Below are positions 5,094 through 37,720 of a stretch of 37,720 bases of DNA, in pieces (the first letter of the stretch is position 1; each line of letters opens with the position of its first letter). A program made the position numbers and the translations under genes. This DNA is from a virus: positions 1 through 37,720 of IMG/VR virus record IMGVR_UViG_3300009702_000053; one strand, given 5' to 3'. The notes beneath the pieces were generated by a model. That model saw only the letters and a list, made by a program, of their open reading frames with translations, was not told the origin of the DNA and did not search any database.

Positions 5094-5780
5094 TTGACCA
5101 AGCTACTTTCTATACTCTTCGCTGCAAGTATTACTCTTTCTTGCTCTTGTGCTCATGCTCCCAAACCTAAGCCCGTCCCAGACATAGCCGCTGAAACAAT
5201 CCCAAATGTAGTATCACTAAGAGAAGATGGAAACACCTTCTGCAGTGGCTTCGTCATCAAAGGCACTGGTCTCATAGCCACAGCTGACCACTGTGTAGAT
5301 GCTGGTGGATTCTTCTTTGAAGTTGAATGGGAAGGCGAAGTCTTCAATGTAGCCATAGTAGACGTTGATGAGTTTGAAGATGCAGCCATTCTTCGTCCAA
5401 TAGACTTCGTAATACCTCCAGAGGCTGGTCTGGTTCTATCAAACACTCCTGTAGTTGCTGGTCAGCTCGTTGTCTCTGTAGGACATGCTCTAGGTATTCA
5501 CCAAGATACCGTTACAACTGGTATTGTTAGTCATCCTCACCAGGAACTAGATTCAGGCCAGTATTATATCATGGTCGATTCAGCGATCCTAGGAGGCATG
5601 TCTGGTGGTCCAAGCGTCAACAGCTATGGCGAGGTTATCGGAATCAATATCTTTTCGCTAGTAGATCAAACGCTGTGCTTAGACGCAGTAACACCCTGTG
5701 AACCACAATTTATCAGGAGTCCGCTTCACGGCTTATCTCCTGTTGAAACCCTTAAACAACTCTTATCTCATAGAAAGTAA
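5094..5780 (+). CDS. Secreted trypsin-fold serine protease (probable lipoprotein)
   Basis: The 228-residue protein starts with TTG at 5094, placed by a perfect AGGAGG at 5083-5088. Residues 1-16 are a signal peptide and a lipobox-like ITLSC gives a candidate lipidated Cys17. The mature part has the chymotrypsin/HtrA fold signature with a complete triad: His66 in TADHC, Asp96 in EDAAIL and Ser170 in GGMSGGP. There is no PDZ domain. The enzyme would act outside the cytoplasmic membrane. Its place between small membrane proteins is that of a lysis gene, so it may degrade an envelope protein, process a virion protein or modify the lysogen's surface. The TTG start may limit its expression. The catalytic class is secure; the role is not. 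Confidence 0.85.
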   Translation: MTKLLSILFAASITLSCSCAHAPKPKPVPDIAAETIPNVVSLREDGNTFCSGFVIKGTGLIATADHCVDAGGFFFEVEWEGEVFNVAIVDVDEFEDAAILRPIDFVIPPEAGLVLSNTPVVAGQLVVSVGHALGIHQDTVTTGIVSHPHQELDSGQYYIMVDSAILGGMSGGPSVNSYGEVIGINIFSLVDQTLCLDAVTPCEPQFIRSPLHGLSPVETLKQLLSHRK

Positions 5781-5784
5781 TATT

Positions 5785-5952
5785 ATGGACAAGTTTATTA
5801 CATTAGTTACGGACAATGGTCCAGCAATTCTTATAATTGCTGGTGCAGCTGTTGCTTTGCTTAAGGCAATCGCTGTTATAACGCCATCGAACGTGGACAA
5901 CAAGATTGCTAAGGTCCTTGGTGACGCACTCAATCTGTTCCGTCGCAAGTAA
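5785..5952 (+). CDS. Small holin-like membrane protein
   Basis: The 55-residue product from ATG 5785 has a short N-terminus, one strongly hydrophobic helix (GPAILIIAGAAVALLKAIAV), a TPSNVDNKI turn and a basic C-terminus (NLFRRK). The TPS..D.KI..VL pattern after the membrane helix is common in small phage holin-like proteins. It starts four bases after the protease stop, so it is probably in the same operon. An in-frame upstream ATG at 5698 lies inside the protease gene and is less likely. Confidence 0.7.
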   Translation: MDKFITLVTDNGPAILIIAGAAVALLKAIAVITPSNVDNKIAKVLGDALNLFRRK

Positions 5953-5970
5953 CACCAAAGCTATCTGTAG

Positions 5971-5997
5971 CCTCTCTCTACGTCCGTGTAGAGGAGG
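5971..5997 (+). promoter_or_regulatory. Hairpin that hides a strong ribosome-binding site
   Basis: CTCTAC at 5976-5981 pairs with GTAGAG at 5988-5993 over a 6-base loop. With T5975 bulged out, CCTC at 5971-5974 pairs with GAGG at 5994-5997. The resulting 10-bp stem buries the whole GAGGAGG Shine-Dalgarno sequence (5991-5997) of the following gene. This would repress translation until the stem is opened by a ribosome, a protein or temperature. Nothing in the protein sequence explains the pairing, since it lies between genes. Confidence 0.6.
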
Positions 5998-6284
5998 TGC
6001 AGATTGCTGCTACGTCAAACGCATTAGTAATACTAAAGACAAGGCCGAAGGTGAAACAAAACAGCGATCTAGAAAACGTAATTGACCGTCTCCTCTGCGA
6101 GTTGAGGCGCACTAATGCCCTTCTGAAGACTGTTGAAAATGAGATCAGTAGGTGTGGGCCAGATTTCCATCTTATGGGCCTTGTAGGGGCTATCAGGGCC
6201 CTTAAAGAGCGTGATAGAGCCCTATCTGAGGAGAACAGGCGGCTAAAGAAGGACCTAAATAGGCTCATTCACAACAAAAAGTGA
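5997..6284 (+). CDS. Small coiled-coil protein of unknown function
   Basis: The frame encodes up to 95 residues and ends with a long charged coiled coil (ALKERDRALSEENRRLKKDL). The start is unclear. GTG 5997 overlaps the Shine-Dalgarno. An ATT at 6003 has ideal spacing from GAGGAGG. GTG 6051 has its own AAGG at 6041-6044 and would give 77 residues. A TTG at 6004 in another frame would give only a 7-codon peptide. The coiled coil and the position at the end of the lysis-type cassette suggest an Rz-like or sieving role, but no signal peptide is visible. The stop overlaps the promoter that follows. Confidence 0.55.
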   Translation: MQIAATSNALVILKTRPKVKQNSDLENVIDRLLCELRRTNALLKTVENEISRCGPDFHLMGLVGAIRALKERDRALSEENRRLKKDLNRLIHNKK

Positions 6285-6285
6285 A

Positions 6286-6342
6286 AAAAGTGAGTAATAT
6301 CAACACTTTATGCTTGACAAGATATCTACTAACAGGTATAAT
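6286..6342 (+). promoter_or_regulatory. Strong sigma70 promoter with shared upstream element (terminase operon)
   Basis: TTGACA at 6314-6319 and TATAAT at 6337-6342 are separated by 17 bp, a perfect match to the consensus. AAAAGT at 6286-6291 begins an upstream element (GAGTAATATCA and on) that recurs at three other promoters, 21-22 bp before the -35. Transcription would begin near 6349 and serve the terminase, portal and head genes. Confidence 0.85.
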
Positions 6343-7069: not shown

Positions 7070-7577
7070 AGAAAAAGATGATAACATAGTTGGAACCATC
7101 ACCGATGATGAAGGTAATACTACCGAGATCCTAACCAGGAAGAAGGCTGGACGACCAACTCTGTTTGATGAGGAGTTGGCGGATAAGCTTGTGACCTTCA
7201 TTAGAGAGAATCCCTCTAAGAAGAGTGCTTCAAACTTCGTTGGTATTAGTAACAAGACTTTAGATCTCTGGCTCAAGAAGGGCAAAGACGGTCACCCACT
7301 ATATAAGGACTTCGCTGTTCGCTTCCTCGCTGCTCGTGACAACACGAAGAACAAAGCAATCAAGCGAGCGGAGAGTCTAATGATGCAGGACCAAAACCCT
7401 GCTGCTGCTATCCGAGCCCTTCAATGGTACTACCATCAGTTCTTCCCAGACGAGGCTGAGGGCAAGAAGGATATGAAAGTTACTCTCACCCAAGAACTCG
7501 CAGTCAAGAACCTCTCTGCTGATGAGGCCGAGGCTCTCCATTCTATGGTTCACAAGCTCAAAAGCGGAGATGACTAA
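7062..7577 (+). CDS. terS: Terminase small subunit
   Basis: The 171-residue protein contains a GRPTLFDEELADKLVTFI helix followed by a helix-turn-helix (SASNFVGISNKTLDLWLKKG), as in small terminases that recognise the packaging site. A C-terminal helical part (LTQELAVKNLSADEAEAL) would join the large subunit. The large subunit follows, separated only by an HNH gene. Its start overlaps the end of the Cys-rich gene by 8 bp. Confidence 0.85.
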   Translation: MTKEKDDNIVGTITDDEGNTTEILTRKKAGRPTLFDEELADKLVTFIRENPSKKSASNFVGISNKTLDLWLKKGKDGHPLYKDFAVRFLAARDNTKNKAIKRAESLMMQDQNPAAAIRALQWYYHQFFPDEAEGKKDMKVTLTQELAVKNLSADEAEALHSMVHKLKSGDD

Positions 7578-7578
7578 C

Positions 7579-8205
7579 ATGAGTACCATAGACACTACTA
7601 AGTGGAAACAGATTCCCGGCTTTGATGGTGCTTACGAGATTCGTTGCATTGATGGTTTCGTTGAGATTCGTAGCTACAGGAAGAAAGGCGGCGGGTTAAT
7701 AAGAACACCACACCTTCTTCCTGGTCACACAATTCAACAAGGCCCAGAGGCAGGAAGGCGCAGCTTCAATCTGACATACCCAAACAGAAAGAAAGCATCC
7801 AAACAGGCAGCGTTGTGGCTTCTTATGACGTTTGAGGGACCTCTCCCCTTTCCTCGCGCAGAGGCTTGTCATAACGATGGAGACCAAACTAACGATGCCC
7901 TCTATAATCTAAGGTATGACAGCCACGGCAACAACGTGCGCGATCGCGAATATCATGGAACCAATATTGTGGGAGAACGAAATGGGCAGGCGAAGCTCAC
8001 TCCTGCCAACGTTCACCTTATTAGAACAGCAGATTCTACTAAGACGAGTTCGGAACTCGCGGAGCGTTTAGGCGTTAGTATAGATGCAGTCAATATGGCC
8101 CGCAAGGGCATAAGTTGGAGGGAACACCCTACCCCTGCACAAAGGAACTATGGGAGCACGAGATCTCCGAACTGGCAGCCTATAGGACAGAACAACAGTG
8201 TCTGA
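7579..8205 (+). CDS. NUMOD4-HNH homing endonuclease between terminase subunits
   Basis: From ATG 7579, one base after the small-subunit stop, the gene encodes about 208 residues. It has a NUMOD4 module (WKQIPGFDGAYEIR, then VEIRSY), an HNH_3-type catalytic region (ACHNDGDQTNDALYNLRY) and a C-terminal helix-turn-helix (AKLTPANVHLIRTADS and LGVSIDAV). The usual catalytic His pair is represented by ACHND. The 24868 gene is a clear paralog with the same domain order, and the 21253 gene is related. Its stop overlaps the large terminase start by 8 bp. It is a free-standing homing endonuclease inserted into the packaging operon. Confidence 0.88.
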   Translation: MSTIDTTKWKQIPGFDGAYEIRCIDGFVEIRSYRKKGGGLIRTPHLLPGHTIQQGPEAGRRSFNLTYPNRKKASKQAALWLLMTFEGPLPFPRAEACHNDGDQTNDALYNLRYDSHGNNVRDREYHGTNIVGERNGQAKLTPANVHLIRTADSTKTSSELAERLGVSIDAVNMARKGISWREHPTPAQRNYGSTRSPNWQPIGQNNSV

Positions 8206-12189: not shown

Positions 12190-12972
12190 ATGAGATTTGA
12201 GCCTTCACTCAATTTAGAGCATAAGAAGAATTGTATTATCTGTGAGGAGACACTGTTAGACAGTGAATTCACGAAAAGTTACAAATACCAGGGAAGAGAG
12301 ATAAATGTCAATCGCTGCCGTCTGTGTCTGGCTCATCTAGAGCAGCAGAAGGGCAAGCGCGAAGGCGTTACTCCAACAGAGCTAATAGAACCATTCGCTG
12401 CTCAGATTCTGGTCATTGGTCTTGATAGATATGAGGACCAATATGTGTTTGCTCGACGTAGATATGGAGAGGACCAGCTAGGCTGGACTTGTCCTACTGA
12501 TGCAGGCTTGAAGAGGGTCATAGAACTGTCTTACACAGATAGTTTGAATGACCAATATCCTTTCTTTATAGTCTTGGCAGGCTCTATGAAGGTTCAACGT
12601 CATGACGAGCGTTTTAGACATCTGGAGCGTGTTGCTGAAGAAGGCATGAGAGGAGCGATGGAACGTGGAAAGAGCGTCCAGTTCAGAGATTTAGGGCATA
12701 AACAGCATGGACTTGGTGAGTGGTATTCACCTTGTCAAATACAATTTCCACAGCTTGTAAGAGCCTACCAAGGACAGGCTTTCGTGGATGTGTGTAGTGA
12801 TGAGTTCCCTGATAAACATGTTCTGAAGAAAACAGCTGTTGAACTGACAGATCCAGCGGTAGCGGACCTTGACAGATTGCATCGCGTAATTATAGTTGCT
12901 GCATGGGCAAGTAGGTCTGCTGCGATTCGTAATAAGATTGGACAGAAGGCGCAACAGCTATTCGGAGTTTGA
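12190..12972 (+). CDS. Unknown protein with N-terminal zinc-ribbon motif
   Basis: The 260-residue product begins with a four-cysteine metal site (CIIC and CRLC, about 25 residues apart), similar to the N-terminal modules of the HNH proteins in this genome. The remainder mixes alpha and beta and contains no nuclease motif I can recognise (FVIGLDR-like and QHGLGEWYSP segments stand out). AAAGAG precedes ATG 12190. It lies between the structural genes and the integrase. It may be a DNA-binding or recombination-associated protein; no family assigned. Confidence 0.7.
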   Translation: MRFEPSLNLEHKKNCIICEETLLDSEFTKSYKYQGREINVNRCRLCLAHLEQQKGKREGVTPTELIEPFAAQILVIGLDRYEDQYVFARRRYGEDQLGWTCPTDAGLKRVIELSYTDSLNDQYPFFIVLAGSMKVQRHDERFRHLERVAEEGMRGAMERGKSVQFRDLGHKQHGLGEWYSPCQIQFPQLVRAYQGQAFVDVCSDEFPDKHVLKKTAVELTDPAVADLDRLHRVIIVAAWASRSAAIRNKIGQKAQQLFGV

Positions 12973-12993
12973 GGAAAGGATTAGGAGGTAGAA

Positions 12994-13050
12994 ATGAAGA
13001 GAAATATATGGAATATGAACAGAGTAATATTAGGATTGAAGAAAAGTTAG
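12994..13050 (+). CDS. Possible 18-residue leader peptide before integrase
   Basis: A perfect AGGAGG at 12983-12988 stands five bases before ATG 12994, which opens an 18-codon frame (MKRNIWNMNRVILGLKKS). It overlaps the upstream part of the integrase frame in a different phase. The quality of the ribosome site, matched to no other start, is the only evidence. It could be a leader peptide that couples or limits integrase translation. Confidence 0.35.
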   Translation: MKRNIWNMNRVILGLKKS

Positions 13051-13097
13051 TTAGCATTACGAATTGCCTTGACAAGATTCTATTGAGGCTGTATGAT
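13042..13097 (+). promoter_or_regulatory. Promoter for integrase, with shared upstream element
   Basis: TTGACA at 13069-13074 and TATGAT at 13092-13097 are 17 bp apart. AAAAGT at 13042-13047 begins 21 bp before the -35 of a shared element. It contains AGCATTAC, one base from the AGTATTAC motif; another relative, AGTAATATT, lies at 13022. Transcription would start near 13104, just before ATG 13119. Confidence 0.75.
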
Positions 13098-13118
13098 ATA
13101 AAGAGTGAGGAATCGAAT

Positions 13119-14306
13119 ATGAATGAAATGAATAATACTCGTTCTCCGAGTTACAACGACCTGTTTGATATAGAGTTTGCAGTCTGGAAGAAGACTGGAC
13201 GAAAAGGGCGGAAGCCCACTAAGGGCGTGATTGAGAGAGCAAGGCGCAACTGGAACAACCATATCCGAAGTTCTGACATTGGTATGATGCCCGTCAACCA
13301 TGTCACCAAGGATCGTGCTGCATTATTCATTGCTGGCTTGGACCTTGGGCATGATGCACGGGGCAAACTACTTCAATGGCTCCGTAGGTGTTCAGAGCGG
13401 GCTGTAGAAGCCGGTCATATCCGCTTTGACCCCTTCAAGAACGTGAGGGTAGCTAGGGAGCGTTCCACGGAAGATAAGATTAAGTTCTTCCACCCAACTG
13501 AGGAGTACCCAAAGATTCTCGCGAATGCCAGGGACGATGAAGCCAAAGAGCTATTTGGCTTTAGTATGGGCTCTGGAGCGCGGCCAGCGGAAGCTAAGGC
13601 ATTCTGCTGGGAAGATGTGGACTTACAGAATGGTTTTCTTACGTTCCGCTATGGTGGCTCCGAGGATGGTGCAACCAAGAGCGGTAAGCCGGTCAAGGTT
13701 CCTCTTCTGCCAGAAGCTAGACATTGGTTGGAGCATCGTATTACTCGTCTTCACAATGGAATGAAGCCTAAGAGCGGATTGCTATTCCCATCACCTATCA
13801 CAGGCAAGGCGTATAGCCGTAGTCCTGACTTTGGCCTTGAACAGGCTATCTTGGATGCTGGTCTTGAGAAGAATGGTCGTAGCCTCTACGCCTTTAGACA
13901 TGGATTCTGTGTAGCGCTAGCTAACGGTTTCTTTGGAGAAGATCTTGCACCGCGTCGTATTGCAAGAGAGCTGATGAGACAGGATGATCAGAAGGTCATT
14001 GATGTTTATTACAAGATCCTCACACCCACTCTGACAAAGAAGGCAGCTAACGCGGTTGCAATCACGAGTAAGATGGAGCAGACTCCAAGCGATGTAATAG
14101 TGAAACAGAGTAAGGAACCCGACCCTAGGAAGGTTGCATTTATGCAGCCTGGGCGGAATTCCTGTGTTTCCCCCATGATTTTGGGGCAATTTGAGCAGAC
14201 AAGGCGATTGGAACGCCCGCGTATTGAGGCACTCCGAAGTAGTGCCGCTGAGCTGCGTCATCAAGCCGATGCTCTCGATGCCCTAGCAGATGATCTGCTC
14301 AACTAA
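13119..14306 (+). CDS. int: Tyrosine recombinase / phage integrase
   Basis: The frame is open from TTG 12969. I place the start at ATG 13119 because GAGG lies 8 bases before it and a promoter lies just upstream; ATG 13008 would add a short coiled coil. The core has an N-terminal SAM-like domain and a catalytic domain with Arg in SGARPAEAK, a TKSGKPVKVPL strand with the Lys, Arg in LYAFRHGF and the nucleophilic Tyr in VIDVYYKIL. The usual His of HxxR is Tyr, and the later His/Trp position reads Gln (RQDDQ). About 100 residues follow the Tyr, ending in a helical tail (SSAAELRHQADALDAL). It would integrate and excise the phage genome. No attachment site could be identified. Confidence 0.85.
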   Translation: MNEMNNTRSPSYNDLFDIEFAVWKKTGRKGRKPTKGVIERARRNWNNHIRSSDIGMMPVNHVTKDRAALFIAGLDLGHDARGKLLQWLRRCSERAVEAGHIRFDPFKNVRVARERSTEDKIKFFHPTEEYPKILANARDDEAKELFGFSMGSGARPAEAKAFCWEDVDLQNGFLTFRYGGSEDGATKSGKPVKVPLLPEARHWLEHRITRLHNGMKPKSGLLFPSPITGKAYSRSPDFGLEQAILDAGLEKNGRSLYAFRHGFCVALANGFFGEDLAPRRIARELMRQDDQKVIDVYYKILTPTLTKKAANAVAITSKMEQTPSDVIVKQSKEPDPRKVAFMQPGRNSCVSPMILGQFEQTRRLERPRIEALRSSAAELRHQADALDALADDLLN

Positions 14307-14614: not shown

Positions 14615-14970
14615 TGTCTGAAGGAAATGAAGACTCTGTTCTACAAGAACTCAGACAAAGGGTACTGGCGAAAAGGTCTGCCGAGGATAAGCCTACCTAT
14701 AAGAACGATACATTTGCAAAGGCGGCTGCGATGGCTGAGAAGGCCAATGAGATCGAACAGCAGCGGCGTATAGAGTACCTAAAAGAACAAGAGGAGCAAG
14801 AGGAGCCACAAGAGATCATAGTAGATCTACGAGGTTTTCATGTTGTTAGGCAGGATGTAGCTCATATCGTCTTCGAAAACGGCACTGGGCAGCGTCTCAC
14901 TCTGAGGAATTGGAAGGGTCGTTTAGTGCTCGACCAAGGCATTTGGAAAACAGCCATCAAGGAAGACTAA
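14614..14970 (+). CDS. Unknown protein with charged helix and small beta domain
   Basis: The 118-residue product has a long charged helix (AAAMAEKANEIEQQRRIEYL and a Glu-rich run) followed by a compact beta-rich C-terminal part (EIIVDLRGFHVVRQDVAHIV, then GQRLTLRNWKGRLVL). It is translationally coupled to the previous gene (TAATG). I do not recognise it. The layout suggests a structural or DNA-binding accessory of the early region. Confidence 0.65.
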   Translation: MSEGNEDSVLQELRQRVLAKRSAEDKPTYKNDTFAKAAAMAEKANEIEQQRRIEYLKEQEEQEEPQEIIVDLRGFHVVRQDVAHIVFENGTGQRLTLRNWKGRLVLDQGIWKTAIKED

Positions 14971-14971
14971 A

Positions 14972-15205
14972 ATGAAAAAAGTGAGTATTATCAGTACTTT
15001 AGCCTTGACAGCGTTAATCCTTGTGGGTTATACTGAAAGTACGAAGGCAAGTCAGGTCCCATACCTAGACTGCGCTGAGCGAGTAGCTGAACTAAGTGAT
15101 ACTCGCATCTTGAGCCGCCAGACGGCTCTACGAAAGGCACGAGTTTGGTGCCGTGAATTGAATACAACGGACCACCTATGGTTTCGCTCCATCATTGGTC
15201 ATTAA
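14972..15205 (+). CDS. Small exported protein whose signal-peptide region doubles as a promoter
   Basis: The 77-residue product starts with a good signal peptide (MKKVSIISTLALTALILVGY) and a possible cleavage site after TKA. It leaves a mature part of about 50 residues with two cysteines. GGAAG lies 7 bases before ATG 14972, one base after the previous stop. Its first 60 bases also contain a TTGACA promoter with the shared upstream element. A degenerate relative of the same stretch lies at 6281-6346, where it is only a promoter. The coding function is therefore likely but not certain. Confidence 0.6.
   Translation: MKKVSIISTLALTALILVGYTESTKASQVPYLDCAERVAELSDTRILSRQTALRKARVWCRELNTTDHLWFRSIIGH
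14977..15034 (+). promoter_or_regulatory. Promoter inside the start of the 14972 gene
   Basis: TTGACA at 15005-15010 is followed by TATACT at 15029-15034 (18 bp; or TTATAC at 17 bp). AAAAGT at 14977-14982 begins 22 bp before the -35 and leads into GAGTATTATCA. The first 40 bases match the 6286 promoter closely. Transcripts would serve the small genes and helicase downstream. Confidence 0.7.
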
Positions 15206-16293: not shown

Positions 16294-17820
16294 ATGGGTG
16301 TTCTAGACAAAGTAAGAGAGCAGCTAGCGAAGAAGAACGGAGGGGTAGTCCCTACTGTAGCTAAAGCGGTTCCTAAATCAGCCCCGAAACAAAAGACAGA
16401 GGATTACAACGAGGCCTGGGGAATGCCTAAGCAGGGCGAGCCTGAAAAGGTCGTAGCTGAAGAACCCAAAGAGCCCAACAAAGCATTGGTAAAAGGGATT
16501 AAGGATAGCAGTGTTGCCTTTCAGGCAATGGTGTTGTTGTTGGCCGCTGATGATGAGCTGTTCAGGCTCAGCATTTTTAGTAATGTAGGTGAGGCTCCAA
16601 TCTTCGAGTATGCAGGCTTAGCTTGGGTATGGGAGCAGATAAGGGCGCGAGAATCCGTCAGCATCTTCGTTGCAAAAGAGCTGATGGAGGAATATCAGAA
16701 AAGCCCCTCTATTGCTCAAACGCAGGATCAAGTAGGTCCTAGCTTCTTCCTAAAACTGGCTGAAGCAGGGTTAGATGAAGCAGCAGCGACCTTCGTAAAA
16801 GAGAGGGCCACAGGCTGGATGGTTCGTCAGGCTCTGAAGAACTCTTTAGACCCTTTCTTGCGGAAGCTGGATCATCAGCCAGGCGTTCCTGTACTTGATG
16901 AGTTTTTGTCAGTCATTGACAAAGAGAGAGAGAACGCAGCTCGTTTAGAGGCTGATGATGAGCAAGATAGCCACAAGAAAAGACGTGCTGCAAGACGTGC
17001 AGAGATTGAGGCTTCCGCAGGGTCAGCTATTCCTACGATGATTCCAGGATTGGATGACTTATTGAATGGAGGCATTCGTTCAAAACAGTTTGGTATATAC
17101 ATGGCTAAGACTGGTGGAGGTAAAAGTGCTTTCCTCCAATGGTGCGCTGTCAAGGCTGCTGAGCAAGGCAAGTACGCTCTGTTCATCACGTTGGAGTTAG
17201 ACAGAACTACTATTGAAAGCCGCATAGATAGCCAGCTAACGAAGATCGACTATGGAACTATCGAAGGACGCCAAGCAGAGGTTGATAATCGCCTAAAGAA
17301 TATCAATACAGGCGACAGAATACTAGTAAAGGAGTTTCCTGCTGGAACTGCTGCTAATAAGATTGAAAGCTACATAAAGAGACTCGAAAACAAACCCGAC
17401 ATCATCCTGCTCGACTATATTGATGAGATGGGAGCTGCTGACGTAAAGCTTCAAGGCAATGATAGGGCTATAAAGGTGGCTGAAGAGGTTAGAGACCTTG
17501 CTAAGCGGCTCAATAGCCCTATCTGGACGGCTTCACAGGTCAACCGTGAAGGTATCATGGAAAAGAAACCAGATATTGCTCATATGGCTGGTTCTATGCA
17601 GAAGGTGTTCAAGTGTGACATCCTTATCCAGCAATGGAGAGAGGAAAATGCTGAACTAGATGAGATTGTTCTCTATTTGGCTAAGTCGAGAGGCTCTAAG
17701 CCAGAGGAGGAACTCCAGGTGGTCACGCATTTCAATACAATGACCTTCTGCGATATCCCGGCTACGATTCATATGCACAAACTAACTGCCAAGCTGAACA
17801 GAGAGGATAAGGTGGTATAA
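16294..17820 (+). CDS. DnaB-like replicative helicase
   Basis: The 508-residue protein has a charged linker, a DnaB-N-like helical domain at about residues 70-210, and a RecA-fold ATPase. The ATPase has Walker A AKTGGGKS (271-278), a LELDRTTIESR switch region, Walker B IILLDY and the TASQVNREG segment after it. The protein would unwind DNA at the phage fork. AGGAGA lies 7 bases before ATG 16294. Its stop overlaps the ATPase start (TAATG). It is the clearest sign that the phage runs its own replication initiation; no polymerase or primase is visible. Confidence 0.85.
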   Translation: MGVLDKVREQLAKKNGGVVPTVAKAVPKSAPKQKTEDYNEAWGMPKQGEPEKVVAEEPKEPNKALVKGIKDSSVAFQAMVLLLAADDELFRLSIFSNVGEAPIFEYAGLAWVWEQIRARESVSIFVAKELMEEYQKSPSIAQTQDQVGPSFFLKLAEAGLDEAAATFVKERATGWMVRQALKNSLDPFLRKLDHQPGVPVLDEFLSVIDKERENAARLEADDEQDSHKKRRAARRAEIEASAGSAIPTMIPGLDDLLNGGIRSKQFGIYMAKTGGGKSAFLQWCAVKAAEQGKYALFITLELDRTTIESRIDSQLTKIDYGTIEGRQAEVDNRLKNINTGDRILVKEFPAGTAANKIESYIKRLENKPDIILLDYIDEMGAADVKLQGNDRAIKVAEEVRDLAKRLNSPIWTASQVNREGIMEKKPDIAHMAGSMQKVFKCDILIQQWREENAELDEIVLYLAKSRGSKPEEELQVVTHFNTMTFCDIPATIHMHKLTAKLNREDKVV

Positions 17821-18977
17821 TGGATAATACACTATCTACCCCTACTAATACCTTTCAAGATGTTCGGCACTTCATGAATCTAACGGATGAGGGGGTTGCC
17901 AATCTCTTTGCGTTCATGCTGGCCGCTATGACCGATGGTGATGGGCCATATCCTATCGCTCTCATCATAGGCAACATCAACACTGGTAAGAGCTGGATTA
18001 CGGAGGCTGTAAAAGGCCTAATCGACGCTGAGCACGAGCTAACGATGAGAGATAGGGTAGTCGTGCCAGAGAATCCTAAAGAGTTGGTGGACCTAGCTGA
18101 AAGACATCGTTTGGTGTGTCTTGATGACTTGACCTATTACAAGGATCAAGACTTCTTCAGAATGAAGGATGCTATTACTCGCCTAACGGATTTTCAGCCT
18201 GTGTTGGTCAATGGAACCAAGAACACTCTCTTAAGAGACAAGGAATTCAGCCGTGTCTTCGTCATTCAAACCAATGACAAACTAGCTGAGCACAAAACCA
18301 AACAGGAGCTGAGGGCTATTGCCGAGAGGTATAGACCAAGCATCCTGAAAGGGCTTGAGAACGCCCTAGAGTTGTGGAAGCAGGACTCTCAGAAGAAGCC
18401 AATAAGCTTTCATCGCTGTCAGAAAGCTGTAGCAAGGGCTGAGACAGGCGCTGTAGTCAATGGTTTTGACCTTGATGAGCTGCTAATGCATATACACTTG
18501 CCTATTGCGAAGAAGAGAGAGAGAGACCTTGAGGGCCTTGTAATCTTCTCAACCCTAACCCGTATTCTACAGAAAAAGGAAGAACCAATTCGGGCATCTA
18601 TGGGTGAAATGAGACAAAAGGTAATAGGCTATGCTAATAAGAAAAGCCTAATTCCTAACTCTTCGCAGGGTTTCCGCCAGCGCATTCTAGCTACCAAGAA
18701 TGACCTATTTGAGCACTCACGCATAGAAATCACATTTCTGGAAAAGATAAACAAGGTGGATTTCTTCCTGTGGAAGATAGCCAAGGAGATCGATAAGAAG
18801 CTTCTTGCCGATATGTCCATGCATAGCTTCAGAGCGGCCTCTGTAGAGGAAGCTAGGCAGTTGCTGGGCGATTGGTTGGAGAACTCAACGCTCGTTAGTG
18901 GTTACTCCATAGAAGAGGTAAGAGCCGAAATAGAGAAACACTTGGCAGAGTTTGAGCCAGAAGAGGAGGGAACATGA
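17820..18977 (+). CDS. P-loop ATPase, probable AAA+ helicase loader or SF3-like protein
   Basis: The 385-residue protein has Walker A GNINTGKS (51-58), Walker B LVCLDD (98-103) and a sensor-like FVIQTND around 147-153. An Arg in ERYRPSILKG could act as an arginine finger. The C-terminal half is helical and basic. Translational coupling to the DnaB-like gene suggests a loader or co-helicase at the origin. It lacks a recognisable primase domain. The ATPase call is firm; the subclass is inferred from context. Confidence 0.75.
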   Translation: MDNTLSTPTNTFQDVRHFMNLTDEGVANLFAFMLAAMTDGDGPYPIALIIGNINTGKSWITEAVKGLIDAEHELTMRDRVVVPENPKELVDLAERHRLVCLDDLTYYKDQDFFRMKDAITRLTDFQPVLVNGTKNTLLRDKEFSRVFVIQTNDKLAEHKTKQELRAIAERYRPSILKGLENALELWKQDSQKKPISFHRCQKAVARAETGAVVNGFDLDELLMHIHLPIAKKRERDLEGLVIFSTLTRILQKKEEPIRASMGEMRQKVIGYANKKSLIPNSSQGFRQRILATKNDLFEHSRIEITFLEKINKVDFFLWKIAKEIDKKLLADMSMHSFRAASVEEARQLLGDWLENSTLVSGYSIEEVRAEIEKHLAEFEPEEEGT

Positions 18978-19276
18978 GGGAATATTCTTCAGGAATACAA
19001 CCTGAGCCATGGACCTTTTGGATTGATGCATCCTCTAACCCGAGAACTGGATGTGGAAGCTACGTAGTTCAGGTCATGAAACCTGAGAGGATGGAGACTG
19101 TCAGGACTCGCCAAGTGGCCTTCTTAAAAGTTGAGGAAAATGGTCAAGTAATACTAAAACCCAGAGATGGGATGGAGGATCATTTCCTGCTGTCATGGTT
19201 CTATAAAGAACATTTCAAAGCAACAGGGGACTTAGAAGCTGATCTCAATCTATTGGTCTTGGGGGGTTTAAAATGA
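18974..19276 (+). CDS. Unknown protein at the end of the replication operon
   Basis: The 100-residue product overlaps the ATPase stop by four bases (ATGA). It has a beta-rich front (WTFWIDASSNPRTGCGSYVV) and a helical end (LEADLNLLVLGGLK). The WTFWIDAS...GCGSY stretch recalls the first strand pair of RNase H-like folds, but the other catalytic residues are not evident. AGTAATACT occurs inside it (19147-19155) and at its stop. Confidence 0.6.
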   Translation: MREYSSGIQPEPWTFWIDASSNPRTGCGSYVVQVMKPERMETVRTRQVAFLKVEENGQVILKPRDGMEDHFLLSWFYKEHFKATGDLEADLNLLVLGGLK

Positions 19277-19290
19277 GTAATACTCAATGA
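19273..19290 (+). promoter_or_regulatory. Five-codon minicistron with a perfect operator-like palindrome
   Basis: ATG 19273 overlaps the previous stop (ATGA), encodes MSNTQ and stops in TGA that overlaps the next ATG at 19287. The coupled minicistron would carry ribosomes from one gene to the next. It also contains TGAGTAATACTCA (19274-19286), a perfect 13-bp palindrome and the fullest form of the repeated motif. Confidence 0.45.
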
Positions 19291-19448
19291 CTTATGAAGA
19301 AGCCCTTGAATTCATCACTCCACTACTCGCGCTGGGGGATGAAGTAATACACCTACTCCTACTGGATCCAGACTTTGAAGCTCAGTTTGATGAGTCACTC
19401 AGAGCTATCTTCTGGGAAACACGCAAGTATATGCAGAAGAGGGGCTAG
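19287..19448 (+). CDS. 53-residue acidic helical protein of unknown function
   Basis: ATG 19287 opens a 53-codon frame with an acidic, helical product (MTYEEALEFITPLLALGDEV, then LLLLDPDFEAQFDESLRAIF). It has no clear ribosome site and is probably coupled to the minicistron before it. The sequence looks like real protein with good amphipathic pattern. A GTAATAC motif lies inside it (19344-19350). Confidence 0.55.
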   Translation: MTYEEALEFITPLLALGDEVIHLLLLDPDFEAQFDESLRAIFWETRKYMQKRG

Positions 19449-19536
19449 CTAGGCAATAGCCGAGAATACCCCATTACTGGGCCTAGCAGCCTCGTAGAAG
19501 CTATCAAATCATGGAGATGATATATCTCCCCAAGGA

Positions 19537-19568
19537 GCCTCAATAGTATTACGCTGTTGAGGCTTTTG
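19537..19568 (+). terminator. Rho-independent terminator with motif in loop
   Basis: GCCTCAA (19537-19543) pairs with TTGAGGC (19557-19563), followed by TTTTGTG. It would end the replication operon. The 13-base loop contains AGTATTAC, so a protein bound to the motif would sit on the terminator. Confidence 0.75.
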
Positions 19569-19617
19569 TGTAGCTATGTAGCCACGCCAGTTTCTATTTT
19601 CTCACACAAAGTATTAC

Positions 19618-19686
19618 GGAAACCCCCCTTTCGCCCCCCACAGTCATAAGACGGATGGATAGATGGACCTGGCAGGGGGGGTTTCC
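19618..19686. repeat. 11-bp inverted repeat
   Basis: GGAAACCCCCC (19618-19628) is the exact reverse complement of GGGGGGTTTCC (19676-19686). A GTATTAC motif abuts its left arm. It could form a cruciform or an RNA stem. Confidence 0.6.
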
Positions 19687-20013
19687 CTTCGGGTCCACCC
19701 CCGCCTGCTCAGGGCGACTCCCCCCTAATTATCAGCACAAACTCACTCTTCTCTTCTTTTCTCCCCTGAATCAAAAACCCCGTAAAAAGGAAACCCTATA
19801 CACTTTCCGACCCTTTCCCAGACACTTTCCTTTTTGGTTCTCTGTAGTTCTTCCTAGCCTCTGCCAAGTTACATCGTTAGGGAATAGTGGTGGGCGAGTA
19901 ATACTATTAGAGGTAGTAGGGGCACTCTGATATAGGTTTACTCAGAAGTGTGTATAAAGGTTTGCTCTGTAGGCCTGGTCAGGGAAGGTAGGACCCAGTA
20001 GGAAGGGCGCTAT

Positions 20014-20081
20014 AGTAGGCTAGGTAGGTTGGTCAGGCTAGTCAGGAGTATTACTTCAGTAGGCTAGGTAGGTTGGTCAGG
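20014..20081 (+). repeat. 24-bp direct repeat
   Basis: The same 24 bases, beginning AGTAGGCTAGGTAGG, occur at 20014-20037 and 20058-20081 with a 44-bp period. AGTATTACT (20047-20055) lies between them. CCCAGTAGG flanks both sides (near 19994 and 20083). The pattern resembles iterons. Confidence 0.7.
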
Positions 20082-20388
20082 GCCCAGTAGGCGGCAAACC
20101 GATCACATCACACACCCCTCCTCAGATCCCCCAGCCCAACCTTCCAACCGAATGCAACCTTAGATAGGTTGAAGCCGTAAAACACTGGTTATCTTTATGT
20201 TTCTCTGGAGGTTGCAGCCAGCCGACCCACCCCCCATTTCCGTAATCTGGCAGGAAGGGGTTCTCAGGCAACTGGAAAAGATCTACCAGAATTTCTATAT
20301 CCCCGAGGTATTACTAATATTTCTACCAATTTTTCGTTATATCCCCGGCCTACCCTCTCCGGCCCATTGTGCCTTCTACACTCTGCCC

Positions 20389-20423
20389 AACCCCCCGAAA
20401 ACCACTAGATATAGGGGGTTTTT
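20389..20423 (+). terminator. Candidate terminator
   Basis: AACCCCC (20389-20395) pairs with GGGGGTT (20414-20420), followed by TTTGG. It lies before the TGAGTGTTACTCA motif (20444-20456). No rightward gene of note precedes it; it may mark an RNA from the repeat region. Confidence 0.45.
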
Positions 20424-20645
20424 GGCGATCCTATAGAGAAACATGAGTGTTACTCACTTTTAGTTACTTTATACTAAGTAAAGTTAGCAGTGAGTACCTA
20501 AGTACTATAGGGGTGAAGTACCTATAATATCTTTAGCGGCGTTAGACGGCGTTCTAGGCACCTTCCTGGGCAATCTGGGAGGGAGCGCTGGTCCACTATA
20601 GAGCTGCCCAACCAACCCAACTGCCCTATCTGCCAAGTACTACTC

Positions 20646-21041
20646 CTACCGACCGATACGGACTACTCGCTCTTCTAGCCTACTAATGATCTTGGCGGCC
20701 TGGGCTAGAGTGGAGAGTTCGGATGGGGTGAGTTCATAGAGGGTAATACTGGTGAGGGCAGAGCCTACACCAAGTTTTGTTTTGGGGGGAGCTGACGCTT
20801 TAGGGGTAATACTCTCACTAGCCATTTGCTCAAACTTCCGTTTCCAGCTGCTCAAGGTCACTTGGCTTACTCCGAGGGACTTAGCCACCGCGGTCTGGGT
20901 TTCGCCTGATATTACTCGCTGGACGGCGTTGGCTTTGAAGCTGTCAGAGTATGAGGCTCTGGTGGCTTTGGGCTTCTTCTTCGGGGGAGACTTTCGAGCT
21001 GGACGCTTCTTGGTGGTTCGCTTCTTCTTGGGGGATGCCAT
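20646..21041 (-). CDS. HTH DNA-binding protein with histone H1-like basic tail
   Basis: This leftward gene encodes 131 residues. The first 30 are almost all Lys, Arg, Pro, Ser, Thr and Ala with SPKK and SPPKKK motifs, like an H1 tail. A transposase OrfA-like helix-turn-helix follows (SYSDSFKANAVQRVISGE, QTAVAKSLGVSQVTLSSW). The C-terminus is a leucine-rich helix that could dimerise. AAGGAG precedes the start. No transposase partner or inverted repeats are present, so it is not an insertion sequence. It sits within the AGTAWTACT cluster and carries two copies in its own coding sequence. A role as regulator, nucleoid-like protein or initiator is inferred. Confidence 0.75.
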   Translation of the reverse strand: MASPKKKRTTKKRPARKSPPKKKPKATRASYSDSFKANAVQRVISGETQTAVAKSLGVSQVTLSSWKRKFEQMASESITPKASAPPKTKLGVGSALTSITLYELTPSELSTLAQAAKIISRLEERVVRIGR

Positions 21042-21189: not shown

Positions 21190-21245
21190 AAAAGTTAACT
21201 ATCTTACAAATAATACTTGACAGGTTCCTAATAATTTAGTACGAT
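21190..21245 (+). promoter_or_regulatory. Promoter with shared upstream element before the HNH gene
   Basis: TTGACA at 21217-21222 and TACGAT at 21240-21245 are 17 bp apart. AAAAGT at 21190-21195 is 21 bp before the -35, as in the integrase promoter. The predicted start near 21252 coincides with ATG 21253, so the transcript may be leaderless. Confidence 0.65.
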
Positions 21246-21252
21246 GAAATAT

Positions 21253-21882
21253 ATGAGAAAAGCAATGCTTGGTATTTCAAAAAATATAGTTCTAGAAGAG
21301 CAGTTAGGAATCCGAACCTGCCATGACTGCCAGGAGCCAAGACCGTTATCCTTCTATTATAAGTCAGATGAAGTCTGTCATGAGTGTTATTCTAAGACCC
21401 GTCCCATTCCAGGATATGAGGGTCTGTATACAGTTAGTGCCTATGGACGAGTATTCTCTCTTCGAAGTGATAAGTACCTCAGCCCATCCAAAGATATGGG
21501 GGGCTACCTCCAGGTCCAGTTGTGTAAGAGCGGAGAACAAAAGCCCTTCAAGATCCAATGGCTCGTTCTTGAGGCGTTCGTAGGTCCACGCCCTAAAGGT
21601 ATGTGGGCACTCCACAAGAATGACATTCCATCAGACAACCGACTGGTGAATCTATACTGGGGAACCCCTACTGAGAACTGTGAAGATCGAGCCAAGAACA
21701 ACCCAAACATGGTTTTTCAGCGAGGTGAGGGGCACAGTCACTCCAAACTAACAAACGATGAAGTTCTCGCCATTCGTGCGTCCAATGAAGCTCGGATTAC
21801 CCTAGCCAATAAATATGGCATTAGCGTCGGGCAAATATCAAACATTAAAAGTAGAAGAGCATGGAAGCATCTTCTATCTTAA
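21253..21882 (+). CDS. NUMOD4-HNH homing endonuclease with zinc-ribbon N-terminus
   Basis: The product is about 209 residues. It has a four-Cys module (CHDC and CHEC), a NUMOD4 region (RPIPGYEGLYTVSAYGRVFS), an HNH_3-like catalytic part (ALHKNDIPSDNRLVNLYWGT) and a helix-turn-helix end (SKLTNDEVLAIRASN, YGISVGQISNI). ATG 21244 falls inside the -10 box of the promoter, so ATG 21253 or 21262 is more likely. It resembles the 7579 and 24868 genes but has a different N-terminus, so it is a more distant relative. It is free-standing in the accessory region. Confidence 0.85.
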   Translation: MRKAMLGISKNIVLEEQLGIRTCHDCQEPRPLSFYYKSDEVCHECYSKTRPIPGYEGLYTVSAYGRVFSLRSDKYLSPSKDMGGYLQVQLCKSGEQKPFKIQWLVLEAFVGPRPKGMWALHKNDIPSDNRLVNLYWGTPTENCEDRAKNNPNMVFQRGEGHSHSKLTNDEVLAIRASNEARITLANKYGISVGQISNIKSRRAWKHLLS

Positions 21883-22352: not shown

Positions 22353-22380
22353 TTGACTCTGTTACTTTGGGTCTTATTAT
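22353..22380 (+). promoter_or_regulatory. Promoter before the duplicated-leader genes
   Basis: TTGACT (22353-22358) and TATTAT (22375-22380) are 16 bp apart. The start would fall near 22387, at the beginning of the leader hairpin. The second leader copy has TATGAT (22738-22743) but no good -35; it has AGTAACACT (22709-22717) upstream instead. Confidence 0.55.
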
Positions 22381-22433
22381 GATTTATGAGACATATGACA
22401 TGTCTCGGAAAGAGAACTGAAAATGAAGAAACT
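22380..22433 (+). repeat. Duplicated leader, copy 1, with hairpin and six-codon upstream ORF
   Basis: This leader recurs exactly 360 bp downstream. GAGACAT (22388-22394) pairs with ATGTCTC (22400-22406), placing the start of an upstream ORF (MSRKEN, 22400-22420) inside the stem. That ORF stops two bases before ATG 22423. Its codons include the GGAAAGAG that serves as ribosome site of the main gene. Confidence 0.7.
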
Positions 22434-22698
22434 TACGACATTTGAGAAGAAAGAACTGAAGGCTGAAACAGGTATCATACTGTTGTCACTGTTGCTGCCT
22501 CCAGCCCTGCTGCTGCTAGCGAATCTGACCATATTCAGAGGAGACGATACTAATGCCTTCAATGCATCAGTATGGATTTGGATTATTCTATATCTGGGCT
22601 CCATCGTTGGCGCGGGAGAGATGTTTGCAAAACGTCATATTGAGCTGAACGCAAAAGAAGAACGTATCGAGCGAGCTAAGCGCAATGGGGATCAATAG
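22423..22698 (+). CDS. Small membrane protein with two transmembrane segments
   Basis: The 91-residue product has a short cytoplasmic-looking start (MKKLTTFEKKELKAETG), two hydrophobic helices (IILLSLLLPPALLLLANL and WIWIILYLGSIVGAGEMF) and a charged tail. It shares its leader and first codons with the 22783 lipoprotein gene but not the rest. Phage genes of this kind often alter the lysogen's envelope (superinfection exclusion), but that is a guess. Confidence 0.65.
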   Translation: MKKLTTFEKKELKAETGIILLSLLLPPALLLLANLTIFRGDDTNAFNASVWIWIILYLGSIVGAGEMFAKRHIELNAKEERIERAKRNGDQ

Positions 22699-22739
22699 TG
22701 TCATTTTCAGTAACACTGTATTTCGCTTCCACATTGATA

Positions 22740-22793
22740 TGATTTAAGAGGCACATATTATGTCTCGGAAAGAGAACTGAAAATGAAGAAACT
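22740..22793 (+). repeat. Duplicated leader, copy 2
   Basis: The second copy keeps 34 bases identical (from the MSRKEN start at 22760 through the first codons of the main gene). The 5' hairpin arm has changed, but one change (A to G) keeps a G-U pair; the closing pair near the loop is lost. The upstream ORF stops at 22780, two bases before ATG 22783. Confidence 0.7.
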
Positions 22794-23037
22794 GATGATT
22801 ACATTGATTGGCCTAGTAGCTTTGATTGGCTGTGGTCCTGTTGATAAAGACTTTAGCCCTCCCGTTGATGACAGAGCCCCAGCAGGCTGGTGTAAGCTCT
22901 ATAGCTGCGACAACACAGCCTATACCAGCATTGAGTGTGCTGAGGTCATGACTGAGGAAGACTACTTCTGGAATCAGAACAAAGTTTGGGGATGTGATAA
23001 TGGTCCGCTCGAAACTGACCTCCTGCTGAGTAACTAA
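22783..23037 (+). CDS. Small lipoprotein
   Basis: The 84-residue product has a signal peptide with a clear lipobox (LVALIGC). The mature part has five further cysteines in a compact acidic domain (GWCKLYSCDN, SIECAEVM, VWGCDNG). It would be anchored in the envelope after lipid modification. It shares its leader with the neighbouring membrane protein. Lysogenic-conversion lipoproteins that block receptors or injection are known, and this is a reasonable candidate. Confidence 0.7.
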   Translation: MKKLMITLIGLVALIGCGPVDKDFSPPVDDRAPAGWCKLYSCDNTAYTSIECAEVMTEEDYFWNQNKVWGCDNGPLETDLLLSN

Positions 23038-23071
23038 CACAATAACGTATTACTAAGAAAGAGAGTACAAA

Positions 23072-23761: not shown

Positions 23762-24154
23762 ATGATAGATACTAATACAAAAATCGACGCCTTTACACAA
23801 CGCTTCGTAGAATGGGCTTCCAAAATCGTGGTCAAGAACCAGTTCGTTAGTCCCGAGCTTGATGAAGAGATACTCCTTAATACATTACGTGGGCATGAGC
23901 AGGATACGGCGGCTCAACTGATTGAATCTCAAGAGATGGAGCTTGTTCTTATGGAGAATATCAAAGCCCTGAACGAGAAACGCAACATATATGTAGGAAC
24001 TCTCTTCGGAGAGATCCTTAGAGCAGCGGTGGACGCTCAGCTTGAGGTTCTTTCAGAAACGGAATCCCAAACAAAGCTAACTGATCAGAACCTACGTCTT
24101 GTTCGTATCTTCATTTCTTCTATTGAAAGCGCGATGTTACCAGACGATGATTAG
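23762..24154 (+). CDS. Unknown helical protein
   Basis: ATG 23762 (AGGAC upstream) gives about 130 residues, nearly all helical (MIDTNTKIDAFTQRFVEWAS, then IESQEMELVLMENIKALNEK). An in-frame start at 23690 lies within the previous gene and is less likely. Its end meets the convergent RHH gene with a 4-bp overlap. I do not recognise it. Confidence 0.65.
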   Translation: MIDTNTKIDAFTQRFVEWASKIVVKNQFVSPELDEEILLNTLRGHEQDTAAQLIESQEMELVLMENIKALNEKRNIYVGTLFGEILRAAVDAQLEVLSETESQTKLTDQNLRLVRIFISSIESAMLPDDD

Positions 24155-24417
24155 AACTCTGGGAACTCTTCTAGGTTGGCTGTCGCTATAAGCCAGCGTA
24201 ATACTGCTGAGCGGTTTAGATTCTGACCTCGTGCCCTCCGAAGTGTTACGAAGTTATCAAGCTTCTTAACCTCGCTTGGGTACAACGAGAATGTAGTGAT
24301 TCTGGCAAGATTAGGATCAGCGTTCTTACTGGCTTTTCGCTTTCGTTTCTTAGGCTCCTCGATCGGTTTCTCTCTGATCCGATTCAGGAGCTGCATTAGT
24401 TCGGGGGAGTGTTCCAT
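24151..24417 (-). CDS. Ribbon-helix-helix DNA-binding protein (first of a pair)
   Basis: The leftward product is about 88 residues from ATG at 24417 (AAAGGG nine bases before it). A basic linker (KKRKRKASK) precedes an RHH-like core: a strand (RITTFSLY), helix (SEVKKLDNFVTLRRARG) and helix (NRSAVLRWLIATAN). Proteins of this fold bind DNA as dimers on short palindromes. The upstream gene encodes a paralog and the two are separated by one base. GTAATACT (24198-24205) lies inside its coding sequence. Confidence 0.7.
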   Translation of the reverse strand: MEHSPELMQLLNRIREKPIEEPKKRKRKASKNADPNLARITTFSLYPSEVKKLDNFVTLRRARGQNLNRSAVLRWLIATANLEEFPEF

Positions 24418-24418
24418 T

Positions 24419-24646
24419 TTAGTAGACCCTTTCCATCTGATCGTAGGGAGCATGTCTAATGGCCCAGCGGATCAAGCTGCTCTGATTGATACGAGAGCCT
24501 TTCTTGTGCTCATGCTCCAGGACGGTTCGTATTATTTCAAGTTCTATTGGACCTATCTGCAGCGCGATTGTTTTGTCTTTGTCCATATCAGCAGTATTAC
24601 TGCCTTTGTTAGGTTTGTCAAGACCATTGTGAAAACGACCGAACAT
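24419..24646 (-). CDS. Ribbon-helix-helix DNA-binding protein (second of a pair)
   Basis: The leftward product has 75 residues from 24646, or 55 from the internal Met at 24586. The core KTIALQIG, then IELEIIRTVLEHEHKKG and NQSSLIRWAIRHA parallels the neighbouring RHH protein. GCAGTATTACTGC (24591-24603), a perfect 13-bp palindrome around the motif, lies just before the internal start. A candidate leftward promoter (TTACAG, 16 bp, TATACT) would begin transcripts almost at ATG 24646. Regulator or partition-type roles are possible. Confidence 0.65.
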   Translation of the reverse strand: MFGRFHNGLDKPNKGSNTADMDKDKTIALQIGPIELEIIRTVLEHEHKKGSRINQSSLIRWAIRHAPYDQMERVY

Positions 24647-24867: not shown

Positions 24868-25440
24868 ATGGATACTACTAAATGGGCCCCTATTCCGGGG
24901 TTTGATGGAGCATACGAGATACGTCTGATAGACAAAGACGTTCAAGTTCGTAGCTATCGCTCAAAGCGCGGATACCGATTGAAGGCCCCTAACATTCTTT
25001 TAGGCTACAAAAATAGTGATGGTAGGAGGATGTTCCTCCTAACTATGGATAGTGGAGAGAAGAGGCTACAACAGGCAGCATACTGGGCCTTATATACTTT
25101 TGATTCCATCCCCGTTGCCACTCAACAGGCTTTACACAGAAATGATATCCACAGCGACAATCGTTTGAGCAACCTCTATTGGGGCACATCCGCTGACAAT
25201 GCTCGTGATCGCACCAAGAACGGTAGAGGCCCCTCAAGCAGTCCTCCAAGAAACTTCGGAACCAACAACGGGAGTTCACGACTCAACTGGGATTTGGTTC
25301 ACTTAATTAGGACAACACCAGATGTCCCAGCAACCCTTTGGGCTAAGAGACTTGGGGTATCCCCAAGAACTATTATGCTTGCACGCAACCATATTACCTG
25401 GAAACAGGAAAACTGCCCAACAAACGAACCGACCATATGA
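24868..25440 (+). CDS. NUMOD4-HNH homing endonuclease
   Basis: The 190-residue product starts MDTTKWAPIPGFDGAYEIR (NUMOD4), continues with an HNH_3-like region (ALHRNDIHSDNRLSNLYWGT) and ends with a helix-turn-helix part (RLNWDLVHLIRTTPD, LGVSPRTI). It is a close paralog of the 7579 gene in order and sequence. AAAGAG (24856-24861) is its ribosome site, directly after the pseudoknot. Its stop overlaps the start of the protease/scaffold gene by four bases, so it is inserted at the head operon's edge. Confidence 0.88.
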   Translation: MDTTKWAPIPGFDGAYEIRLIDKDVQVRSYRSKRGYRLKAPNILLGYKNSDGRRMFLLTMDSGEKRLQQAAYWALYTFDSIPVATQQALHRNDIHSDNRLSNLYWGTSADNARDRTKNGRGPSSSPPRNFGTNNGSSRLNWDLVHLIRTTPDVPATLWAKRLGVSPRTIMLARNHITWKQENCPTNEPTI

Positions 25441-37344: not shown

Positions 37345-37720
37345 ATGAGCAGACAGATAACACCAGGAATACAAACTACTATTCAAAGCCATATCGAGCG
37401 CAGAGATCGAGACACCCAGACCACACTGATTGGTAAGATTACGTCCTATGACCACAATACCCAAACTGCTACAGTGAAGCCCGAGCAGGCAGAGGTATGG
37501 AGAGATGACCAAGGACAGAGATACGCAGAGGACTTCCCTAAGATTTACAACGTCCCTATTGCATTCCCTAGGGGTGGAGGGTTCAGCATCGTGTGGCCTC
37601 TAGCCAACGGAGACCCTGTACACATTATCTGCACCAAATATTCCTTCGATTTGTGGAGAAACAGCGGTAAGGCAGGAGACCAAGGTGATACTAGGACCTT
37701 TGGTCTGAATGGAGCCATAG
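37345..37720 (+). CDS. Baseplate spike protein, N-terminal part (continues at base 1)
   Basis: ATG 37345, with AAGGAAG upstream, opens a frame that runs off the end of the window. It shows the Gp138-N-like OB domain of phage spike proteins (TLIGKITSYDHNTQTATVKP, then FSIVWPLANGDPVHIICTKY and DLWRNSGKAGDQGDTRTFG). After the shared 31 bases it continues at position 32. The spike sits on the hub and punctures the host envelope. Confidence 0.88.
   Translation, partial: MSRQITPGIQTTIQSHIERRDRDTQTTLIGKITSYDHNTQTATVKPEQAEVWRDDQGQRYAEDFPKIYNVPIAFPRGGGFSIVWPLANGDPVHIICTKYSFDLWRNSGKAGDQGDTRTFGLNGAI
37690..37720 (+). repeat. Terminal overlap with bases 1-31
   Basis: These 31 bases match bases 1-31 except at 37707 (G) against 18 (A), a silent change in a leucine codon. 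The shared reading frame shows that the ends overlap and the molecule or assembly is circular. Confidence 0.9.

What the first reader, a model, noticed from the sequence alone, without database searches (positions are those of the whole stretch)
19147..20813. Clustered AGTAWTACT palindromes suggest a phage stoperator, origin or partition system
The 7-base core GTAATAC/GTATTAC occurs about 23 times by eye; about five would be expected by chance on both strands. Ten are within 1.7 kb. Most extend to AGTAWTACT, an odd palindrome, and the fullest copies are 13-bp perfect palindromes (TGAGTAATACTCA at 19274-19286, GCAGTATTACTGC at 24591-24603). Copies lie in a terminator loop (19546), before small genes (23047) and inside all three leftward DNA-binding genes. 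Variants lie in promoter-upstream elements (6292, 14983) and at 20446 and 22709. This distribution recalls stoperators of cluster A mycobacteriophages or iterons of a phage-plasmid, but with a motif I do not recognise.
Basis: partly seen in the sequence, partly recalled or inferred. Interest (0 to 1): 0.82.

Follow-up and report, generated by a model that had tools for sequence, protein, structure and literature searches.

The report
Clustered short palindromes beside phage helicases
A previously undescribed bacterial virus carries a short mirror-symmetric DNA word (AGTAWTACT-like) far more often than chance allows, ten times within 1.7 kb around a long stretch without genes beside its replication genes; it is most likely a set of landing sites for one of the virus's own DNA-binding proteins, but which protein, and for what, is not shown.

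Summary
GTAWTAC occurs 23 times against about 3 expected; among 7-, 8- and 9-mers this motif or a one-base shift of it is the most over-represented word. Ten copies lie in 1.67 kb (0.2 expected). The excess is concentrated at 19.1-24.7 kb; copies in genes elsewhere (7) barely exceed synonymous-codon resampling (3.3). The conserved unit is 9 bp (RGTAWTACY); only 8 of 23 copies are full AGTAWTACT, and symmetry beyond 9 bp is at chance level, so the "13-bp palindromes" are not the motif. The array covers a 1.2-kb stretch without coding signal between the DnaB-helicase/ATPase operon and a leftward HTH gene. One perfect copy forms the -10 box of the predicted promoter of two leftward small genes that look like ribbon-helix-helix proteins by eye. 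Best reading: operator array of a phage-encoded dimeric DNA-binding protein, probably autoregulated, at the replication control region. A stoperator is disfavoured (symmetric site, no orientation bias), classical iterons are disfavoured (irregular, unphased spacing), and no ParA was found. No close relatives turned up in the collections searched, so conservation could not be tested.

The parts
19147..19155 (.). site AGTAATACT, in the ORF 18974-19276
19274..19286 (.). site in 13-bp perfect palindrome TGAGTAATACTCA, at the junction of ORFs 18974-19276 and 19287-19448
19343..19351 (.). site AGTAATACA, in the ORF 19287-19448
19536..19564 (+). terminator-like hairpin after the rightward replication operon with site GTATTAC (19546-19552) in its loop
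   Evidence: RNA fold z -3.6
19610..19618 (.). site AGTATTACG, noncoding
19897..19905 (.). site AGTAATACT, noncoding
20047..20055 (.). site AGTATTACT, noncoding, between two identical 24-nt repeats (20014-20037 and 20058-20081)
20307..20315 (.). site GGTATTACT, noncoding
20444..20456 (.). variant site TGAGTGTTACTCA (symmetric arms, altered centre)
20742..20750 (.). site GGTAATACT in the leftward HTH gene
20805..20813 (.). site GGTAATACT in the leftward HTH gene
19449..20645 (.). 1.2-kb stretch without coding signal (codon score about -0.5 in all six frames) holding five of the ten sites; candidate replication/control region
   Evidence: no similar DNA in phages or plasmids
16294..17820 (+). 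DnaB-like replicative helicase
   Evidence: PHROG 19 E 1e-53, Pfam DnaB_C E 3e-16
17820..18977 (+). P-loop ATPase of unknown family (GNINTGKS; sensor-like VFVIQTND), possible loader or SF3-like helicase; reading by eye
   Evidence: no relatives found
20646..21041 (-). helix-turn-helix protein (HTH_Tnp_1, IS3 OrfA-like) with basic N-terminus, candidate binder
   Evidence: Pfam PF01527 E 1.5e-10
24151..24453 (-). small protein, strand-helix-helix pattern resembling ribbon-helix-helix by eye, candidate binder; one site (24198) inside
   Evidence: no credible family match
24419..24583 (-). small protein, two predicted helices in ribbon-helix-helix-like arrangement (pLDDT 73), candidate binder
   Evidence: fold search inconclusive
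24591..24603 (.). site in 13-bp perfect palindrome GCAGTATTACTGC; its AATACT is the -10 hexamer of a leftward promoter TTGACA-17-AATACT (24621-24593)
24197..24205 (.). site CGTAATACT in the leftward gene 24151-24453
23046..23054 (.). site CGTATTACT just upstream of a small ORF (23072)
22709..22717 (.). variant site AGTAACACT, 16 nt upstream of a promoter-like -35 at 22734
21209..21217 (.). variant site AATAATACT overlapping the first base of the -35 of the promoter-like sequence at 21217-21245
5127..6034 (.). weaker second group (5127, 5210, 5776, 6026) upstream of the consensus-perfect promoter at 6314-6342

Best explanation
RGTAWTACY is the binding site of a phage-encoded homodimeric DNA-binding protein, most likely one of the three leftward small proteins (the two RHH-like proteins first, the HTH protein second). 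The protein would repress its own promoter at 24.6 kb, where a perfect site forms the -10 box. It would also occupy the array at 19.1-20.8 kb, around a noncoding stretch next to the helicase genes, and there regulate or silence the replication region and the facing ends of two convergent operons. Shown here: the motif, its clustering, the noncoding stretch, the gene neighbourhood and the site/-10 coincidence (a consensus prediction). Inferred: that a protein binds, which one, and what occupancy does.
For: Strong statistical excess of a symmetric 9-bp word and tight clustering. Concentration at 19.1-24.7 kb, where all three leftward regulator-like genes lie next to the replication genes; the copies in genes elsewhere are close to codon-resampling expectation. 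A perfect site forms the predicted -10 box of the leftward RHH-like genes, the usual layout of autoregulation. The array lies in and around a noncoding stretch directly after the DnaB-like helicase and ATPase genes. In the 17 other phage stretches of at least 18 kb held here, any odd-palindrome family reaching 9-10 copies in 1.67 kb follows base composition, unlike this one.
Against: No sigma-70-like promoter was found at 18.5-21.1 kb, so most array sites are not ordinary promoter operators. The RHH assignment rests on sequence pattern and low-confidence models with no significant fold match. No close relative could be found to test conservation. A host protein could be the binder instead.
Confidence: 0.45

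Rival explanations
1. The 19.45-20.65 kb stretch is the replication origin and the sites are bound by a replication initiator, either the ATPase encoded at 17820-18977 or a leftward protein, in an iteron-like role with unusual spacing.
For: Position directly after the DnaB-like helicase and ATPase genes; 1.2 kb without coding signal; extra 24-nt direct repeats at 20014 and 20058 and sharp local swings of GC skew.
Against: Spacing is irregular (129, 67, 202, 65, 287, 150, 260, 435, 63), with no helical phasing (P 0.39) and marginal recurrence of a 63-67 bp spacing (P 0.05). Some copies lie kilobases away at 23.0-24.6 kb. No A+T-rich unwinding segment in the stretch: GC 43-53%.
Confidence: 0.27
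2. Stoperator-like system: a repressor sits at many sites over the prophage and blocks transcription elongation.
For: Multiple sites inside genes, in a terminator loop, near operon ends and near promoters; a tyrosine-recombinase-family gene suggests a temperate phage.
Against: Known stoperators are asymmetric 13-mers oriented with transcription (PMC9283540); this core is symmetric and its centre shows no orientation bias (11:7). Copies in genes outside 18.9-24.7 kb barely exceed expectation (7 against 3.3).
Confidence: 0.1
3. Sites are bound by a host-encoded factor (nucleoid protein, host repressor, or modification enzyme) that the phage exploits.
For: No phage protein has been tied to the site experimentally; Pfam finds no methyltransferase in the phage proteins scanned.
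Against: A host factor would not by itself explain the concentration at the phage's own regulator and replication genes; the host is unknown.
Confidence: 0.12
4. Partition centromere of a phage-plasmid with a ribbon-helix-helix centromere-binding protein.
For: Cluster of palindromes in a noncoding stretch; RHH-like genes a few kilobases away.
Against: No ParA, ParM or TubZ family match in any protein scanned; a tyrosine-recombinase gene suggests integration; the RHH-like genes are about 4 kb away.
Confidence: 0.03

Closest known systems
Cluster A mycobacteriophage operator/stoperator system (L5, TipsytheTRex repressors)
   Same: Many copies of a short repressor site over one phage genome, in promoters and between genes
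   Different: Known sites are asymmetric 13-mers with fixed orientation to transcription, bound by a monomer with two DNA-binding domains (PMC9283540); here a symmetric 9-mer without orientation, concentrated in one part of the genome
SPbeta repeated element (SPBRE) bound by the integrase-like repressor MrpR
   Same: Repeated operator in a temperate phage, bound by a master repressor; an integrase-family gene is present here too
   Different: A 15-bp motif at various intergenic regions (PMC10516654); GTAWTAC is only mildly enriched in the 99 kb of SPbeta examined (16 against 9.6)
Phage replication origins with initiator repeats (lambda O type; iteron origins)
   Same: Repeats beside replication genes in a noncoding stretch
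   Different: Iterons are compact, regularly spaced direct repeats (own knowledge); this array is irregular over 1.7 kb. By contrast the distant TerL relative L073 has a compact set, 7 TTGSCAA in 170 bp
Arc/Mnt-type RHH autoregulators
   Same: Small leftward proteins, perfect palindrome in the -10 box of their own predicted promoter
   Different: RHH fold not demonstrated; no array of this kind for Arc or Mnt is known to me

Membership tests
Stoperators of cluster A phages | asymmetric site oriented with transcription | tested here: not met
   symmetric core; centre base relative to transcription 11 A: 7 T
Stoperators of cluster A phages | 20 or more sites spread over the genome | tested here: inconclusive
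   23 sites but 13 in 5.5 kb; genes outside 18.9-24.7 kb hold 7 against 3.3 expected
Stoperators of cluster A phages | repressor-dependent stop of elongation | not testable with these tools
   needs transcription data
Iteron origin | regularly spaced direct repeats on one helical face | tested here: not met
   irregular spacing, phasing P 0.39
Iteron origin | next to replication genes, with an A+T-rich unwinding segment | tested here: inconclusive
   next to helicase and ATPase genes, but GC 43-53% in the stretch
Partition locus (ParABS/ParMRC/TubZ) | ParA, ParM or TubZ motor gene | tested here: not met
   no match in Pfam scans of the predicted proteins
RHH autoregulator with own operator | RHH fold of the regulator | tested here: inconclusive
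   strand-helix-helix pattern by eye, pLDDT 59 and 73, no significant fold or family match
RHH autoregulator with own operator | operator overlapping its own promoter | tested here: inconclusive
   site forms the -10 of the predicted promoter TTGACA-17-AATACT at 24621-24593; sequence layout met, but the promoter is a consensus prediction and binding is unshown

The most novel reading that the evidence does not exclude
A dimeric, probably RHH, phage protein uses one symmetric 9-bp site both for autoregulation and to coat or loop a 1.7-kb replication-control region between convergent operons: a non-oriented silencing array unlike stoperators, iterons or parS.
Probability: 0.2. Interest if true: 0.6.

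Novelty: new member of a known kind. Interest (0 to 1): 0.42.

Why it matters
If the binder is the autoregulated leftward protein, this small myovirus, whose replication and regulator genes have no detectable close relatives in the collections searched, would offer a simple, testable control circuit: one 9-bp word, a candidate repressor and a candidate origin. It would also show that multi-site phage control does not require oriented stoperator sites.

Tried and rejected
Relatives: IMG/VR scans with the ATPase, MCP, DnaB, RHH-like and HTH proteins gave none. TerL gave relatives of 25-36% identity only, and the motif is not dense in those loci. GTDB genome scans with the sheath and the ATPase gave none. 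Not every locus was read. Rfam: nothing. Helical phasing and a fixed 65-bp spacing: not significant or marginal. SPBRE identity: rejected. A literature search for AGTAATACT (92 papers, 15 listed) showed no operator of this sequence among those listed. RNA structure in the noncoding stretch: only the terminator hairpin stands out.

Full report
What was checked. The word GTAWTAC occurs 23 times in the window. First- and second-order Markov sequences of the same length give 2.7-3.1 (maximum 9 of 300), and third-order gives 5.9, a value inflated by the motif itself. In exhaustive counts the most over-represented 7-, 8- and 9-mers are this motif or shifts of it (AGTAATA, GTAATAC; AGTATTAC, AGTAATAC; AGTAATACT). 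Ten copies lie in 19148-20812 where about 0.2 are expected; random placement of 23 sites never put 10 in 1.67 kb in 20,000 trials.

What the motif is. Re-estimating a symmetric matrix gives RGTAWTACY, 9 bp, with little information beyond +-4. Complementarity at +-5 and +-6 is 5/23 and 6/23, as by chance. About 40 sites pass a stricter matrix threshold against about 4 in simulated sequence, but that matrix was fitted to this sequence, so the excess is overstated.

Where the sites are. Thirteen of 23 lie in 19.1-24.7 kb. When codons are resampled synonymously, genes outside 18.9-24.7 kb should hold 3.3 copies (maximum 9 in 300) and hold 7, so the genome-wide spread is weak evidence by itself. 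A looser second group sits at 5.1-6.0 kb, upstream of a consensus-perfect promoter at 6314. The long structural stretch 24.6-31.4 kb and the region 15.1-19.1 kb hold no strong site.

The neighbourhood. The record is an IMG/VR virus record. Its ends repeat over 31 bp with one mismatch, and a 206-residue reading frame runs through the joined ends, so it is probably a complete circular map of about 37.7 kb. The head and tail genes are those of a small myovirus: portal, major capsid and cement proteins, DUF3383 sheath-like protein, Pam3-like baseplate plug. The nearest named phage by TerL is Aeromonas phage 56 at 35%. A tyrosine-recombinase-family gene (12969-14306) suggests a temperate phage; by eye it has Y in place of the first H of HxxR and Q at the H/W position, which may or may not matter. 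The array lies after a DnaB-like helicase and a P-loop ATPase of unknown family. It covers 19449-20645, which has no coding signal in any frame, and extends into the two small ORFs before it and the leftward HTH gene after it (HTH_Tnp_1). No sigma-70-like promoter is predicted at 18.5-21.1 kb. Further on, two overlapping leftward genes (24151-24453 and 24419-24583/24646) encode small proteins that look like ribbon-helix-helix proteins by eye. Models are consistent in outline but weak (pLDDT 59 and 73), and fold, family and structure searches give nothing significant. Their predicted promoter TTGACA-17-AATACT uses the perfect palindrome as its -10 box.

Interpretation. A symmetric odd-length core fits a homodimer. 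The coincidence of a perfect site with the -10 of the leftward small genes is the best pointer to the binder, but it is one prediction. The array has no regular spacing, no helical phasing and no orientation preference, which speaks against iterons and against stoperators as described for cluster A phages (PMC9283540). No partition motor is found by Pfam. I therefore favour an operator array of an autoregulated phage protein at the replication control region (0.45), with an unusual origin as the main rival (0.27).

Limits. No close relative was found in IMG/VR (8 scans, one of them a DNA pattern), GTDB genomes (2 scans), phages or plasmids; distant TerL, sheath and helicase relatives exist. 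The IMG/VR and GTDB protein scans need short exact peptide matches and so, with a single protein, find only fairly close kin. Conservation of the sites, the strongest test available to computation, could not be made.

Noticed in passing
window 1-31 and 37690-37720: Ends repeat over 31 bp with one mismatch, and a 206-aa reading frame runs through the joined ends: probably a complete circular map.
   Followed up: yes
window 22378-22438 and 22738-22798: Duplicated 61-nt promoter/leader (87% identical) in front of two small ORFs, one with a membrane segment and one lipoprotein-like (protein reading by eye).
   Followed up: partly
window 6278-6319 and 14969-15010: Duplicated 42-nt segment (86%): one copy is the start of a signal-peptide-like ORF, the other runs into a consensus-perfect promoter TTGACA-17-TATAAT.
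   Followed up: partly
window 12969-14306: Tyrosine-recombinase-family gene with Y and Q at two positions usually held by catalytic H and H/W (by eye): a variant integrase or, as with MrpR of SPbeta, a regulator.
   Followed up: no
window 7522-8205, 21244-21882, 24868-25440: Three NUMOD4/HNH-type endonuclease-like genes; 21244 and 24868 match HNH_3 (24868 below the curated cut-off) and 21244 also NUMOD4, while 7522 is similar to 24868 by eye.
   Followed up: no
window 5094-5780: Trypsin-like serine protease with a signal-peptide-like start in a phage genome (Pfam Trypsin_2 E 8e-22).
   Followed up: no
L073:828-997: Distant TerL relative with a compact set of 7 TTGSCAA palindromes in 170 bp, iteron-like.
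   Followed up: no
L174:1233-2436: Array of a roughly 30-nt repeat with about 66-bp period that looks like CRISPR; the repeat contains TAGTAATACTC, unrelated to the window as far as seen.
   Followed up: no
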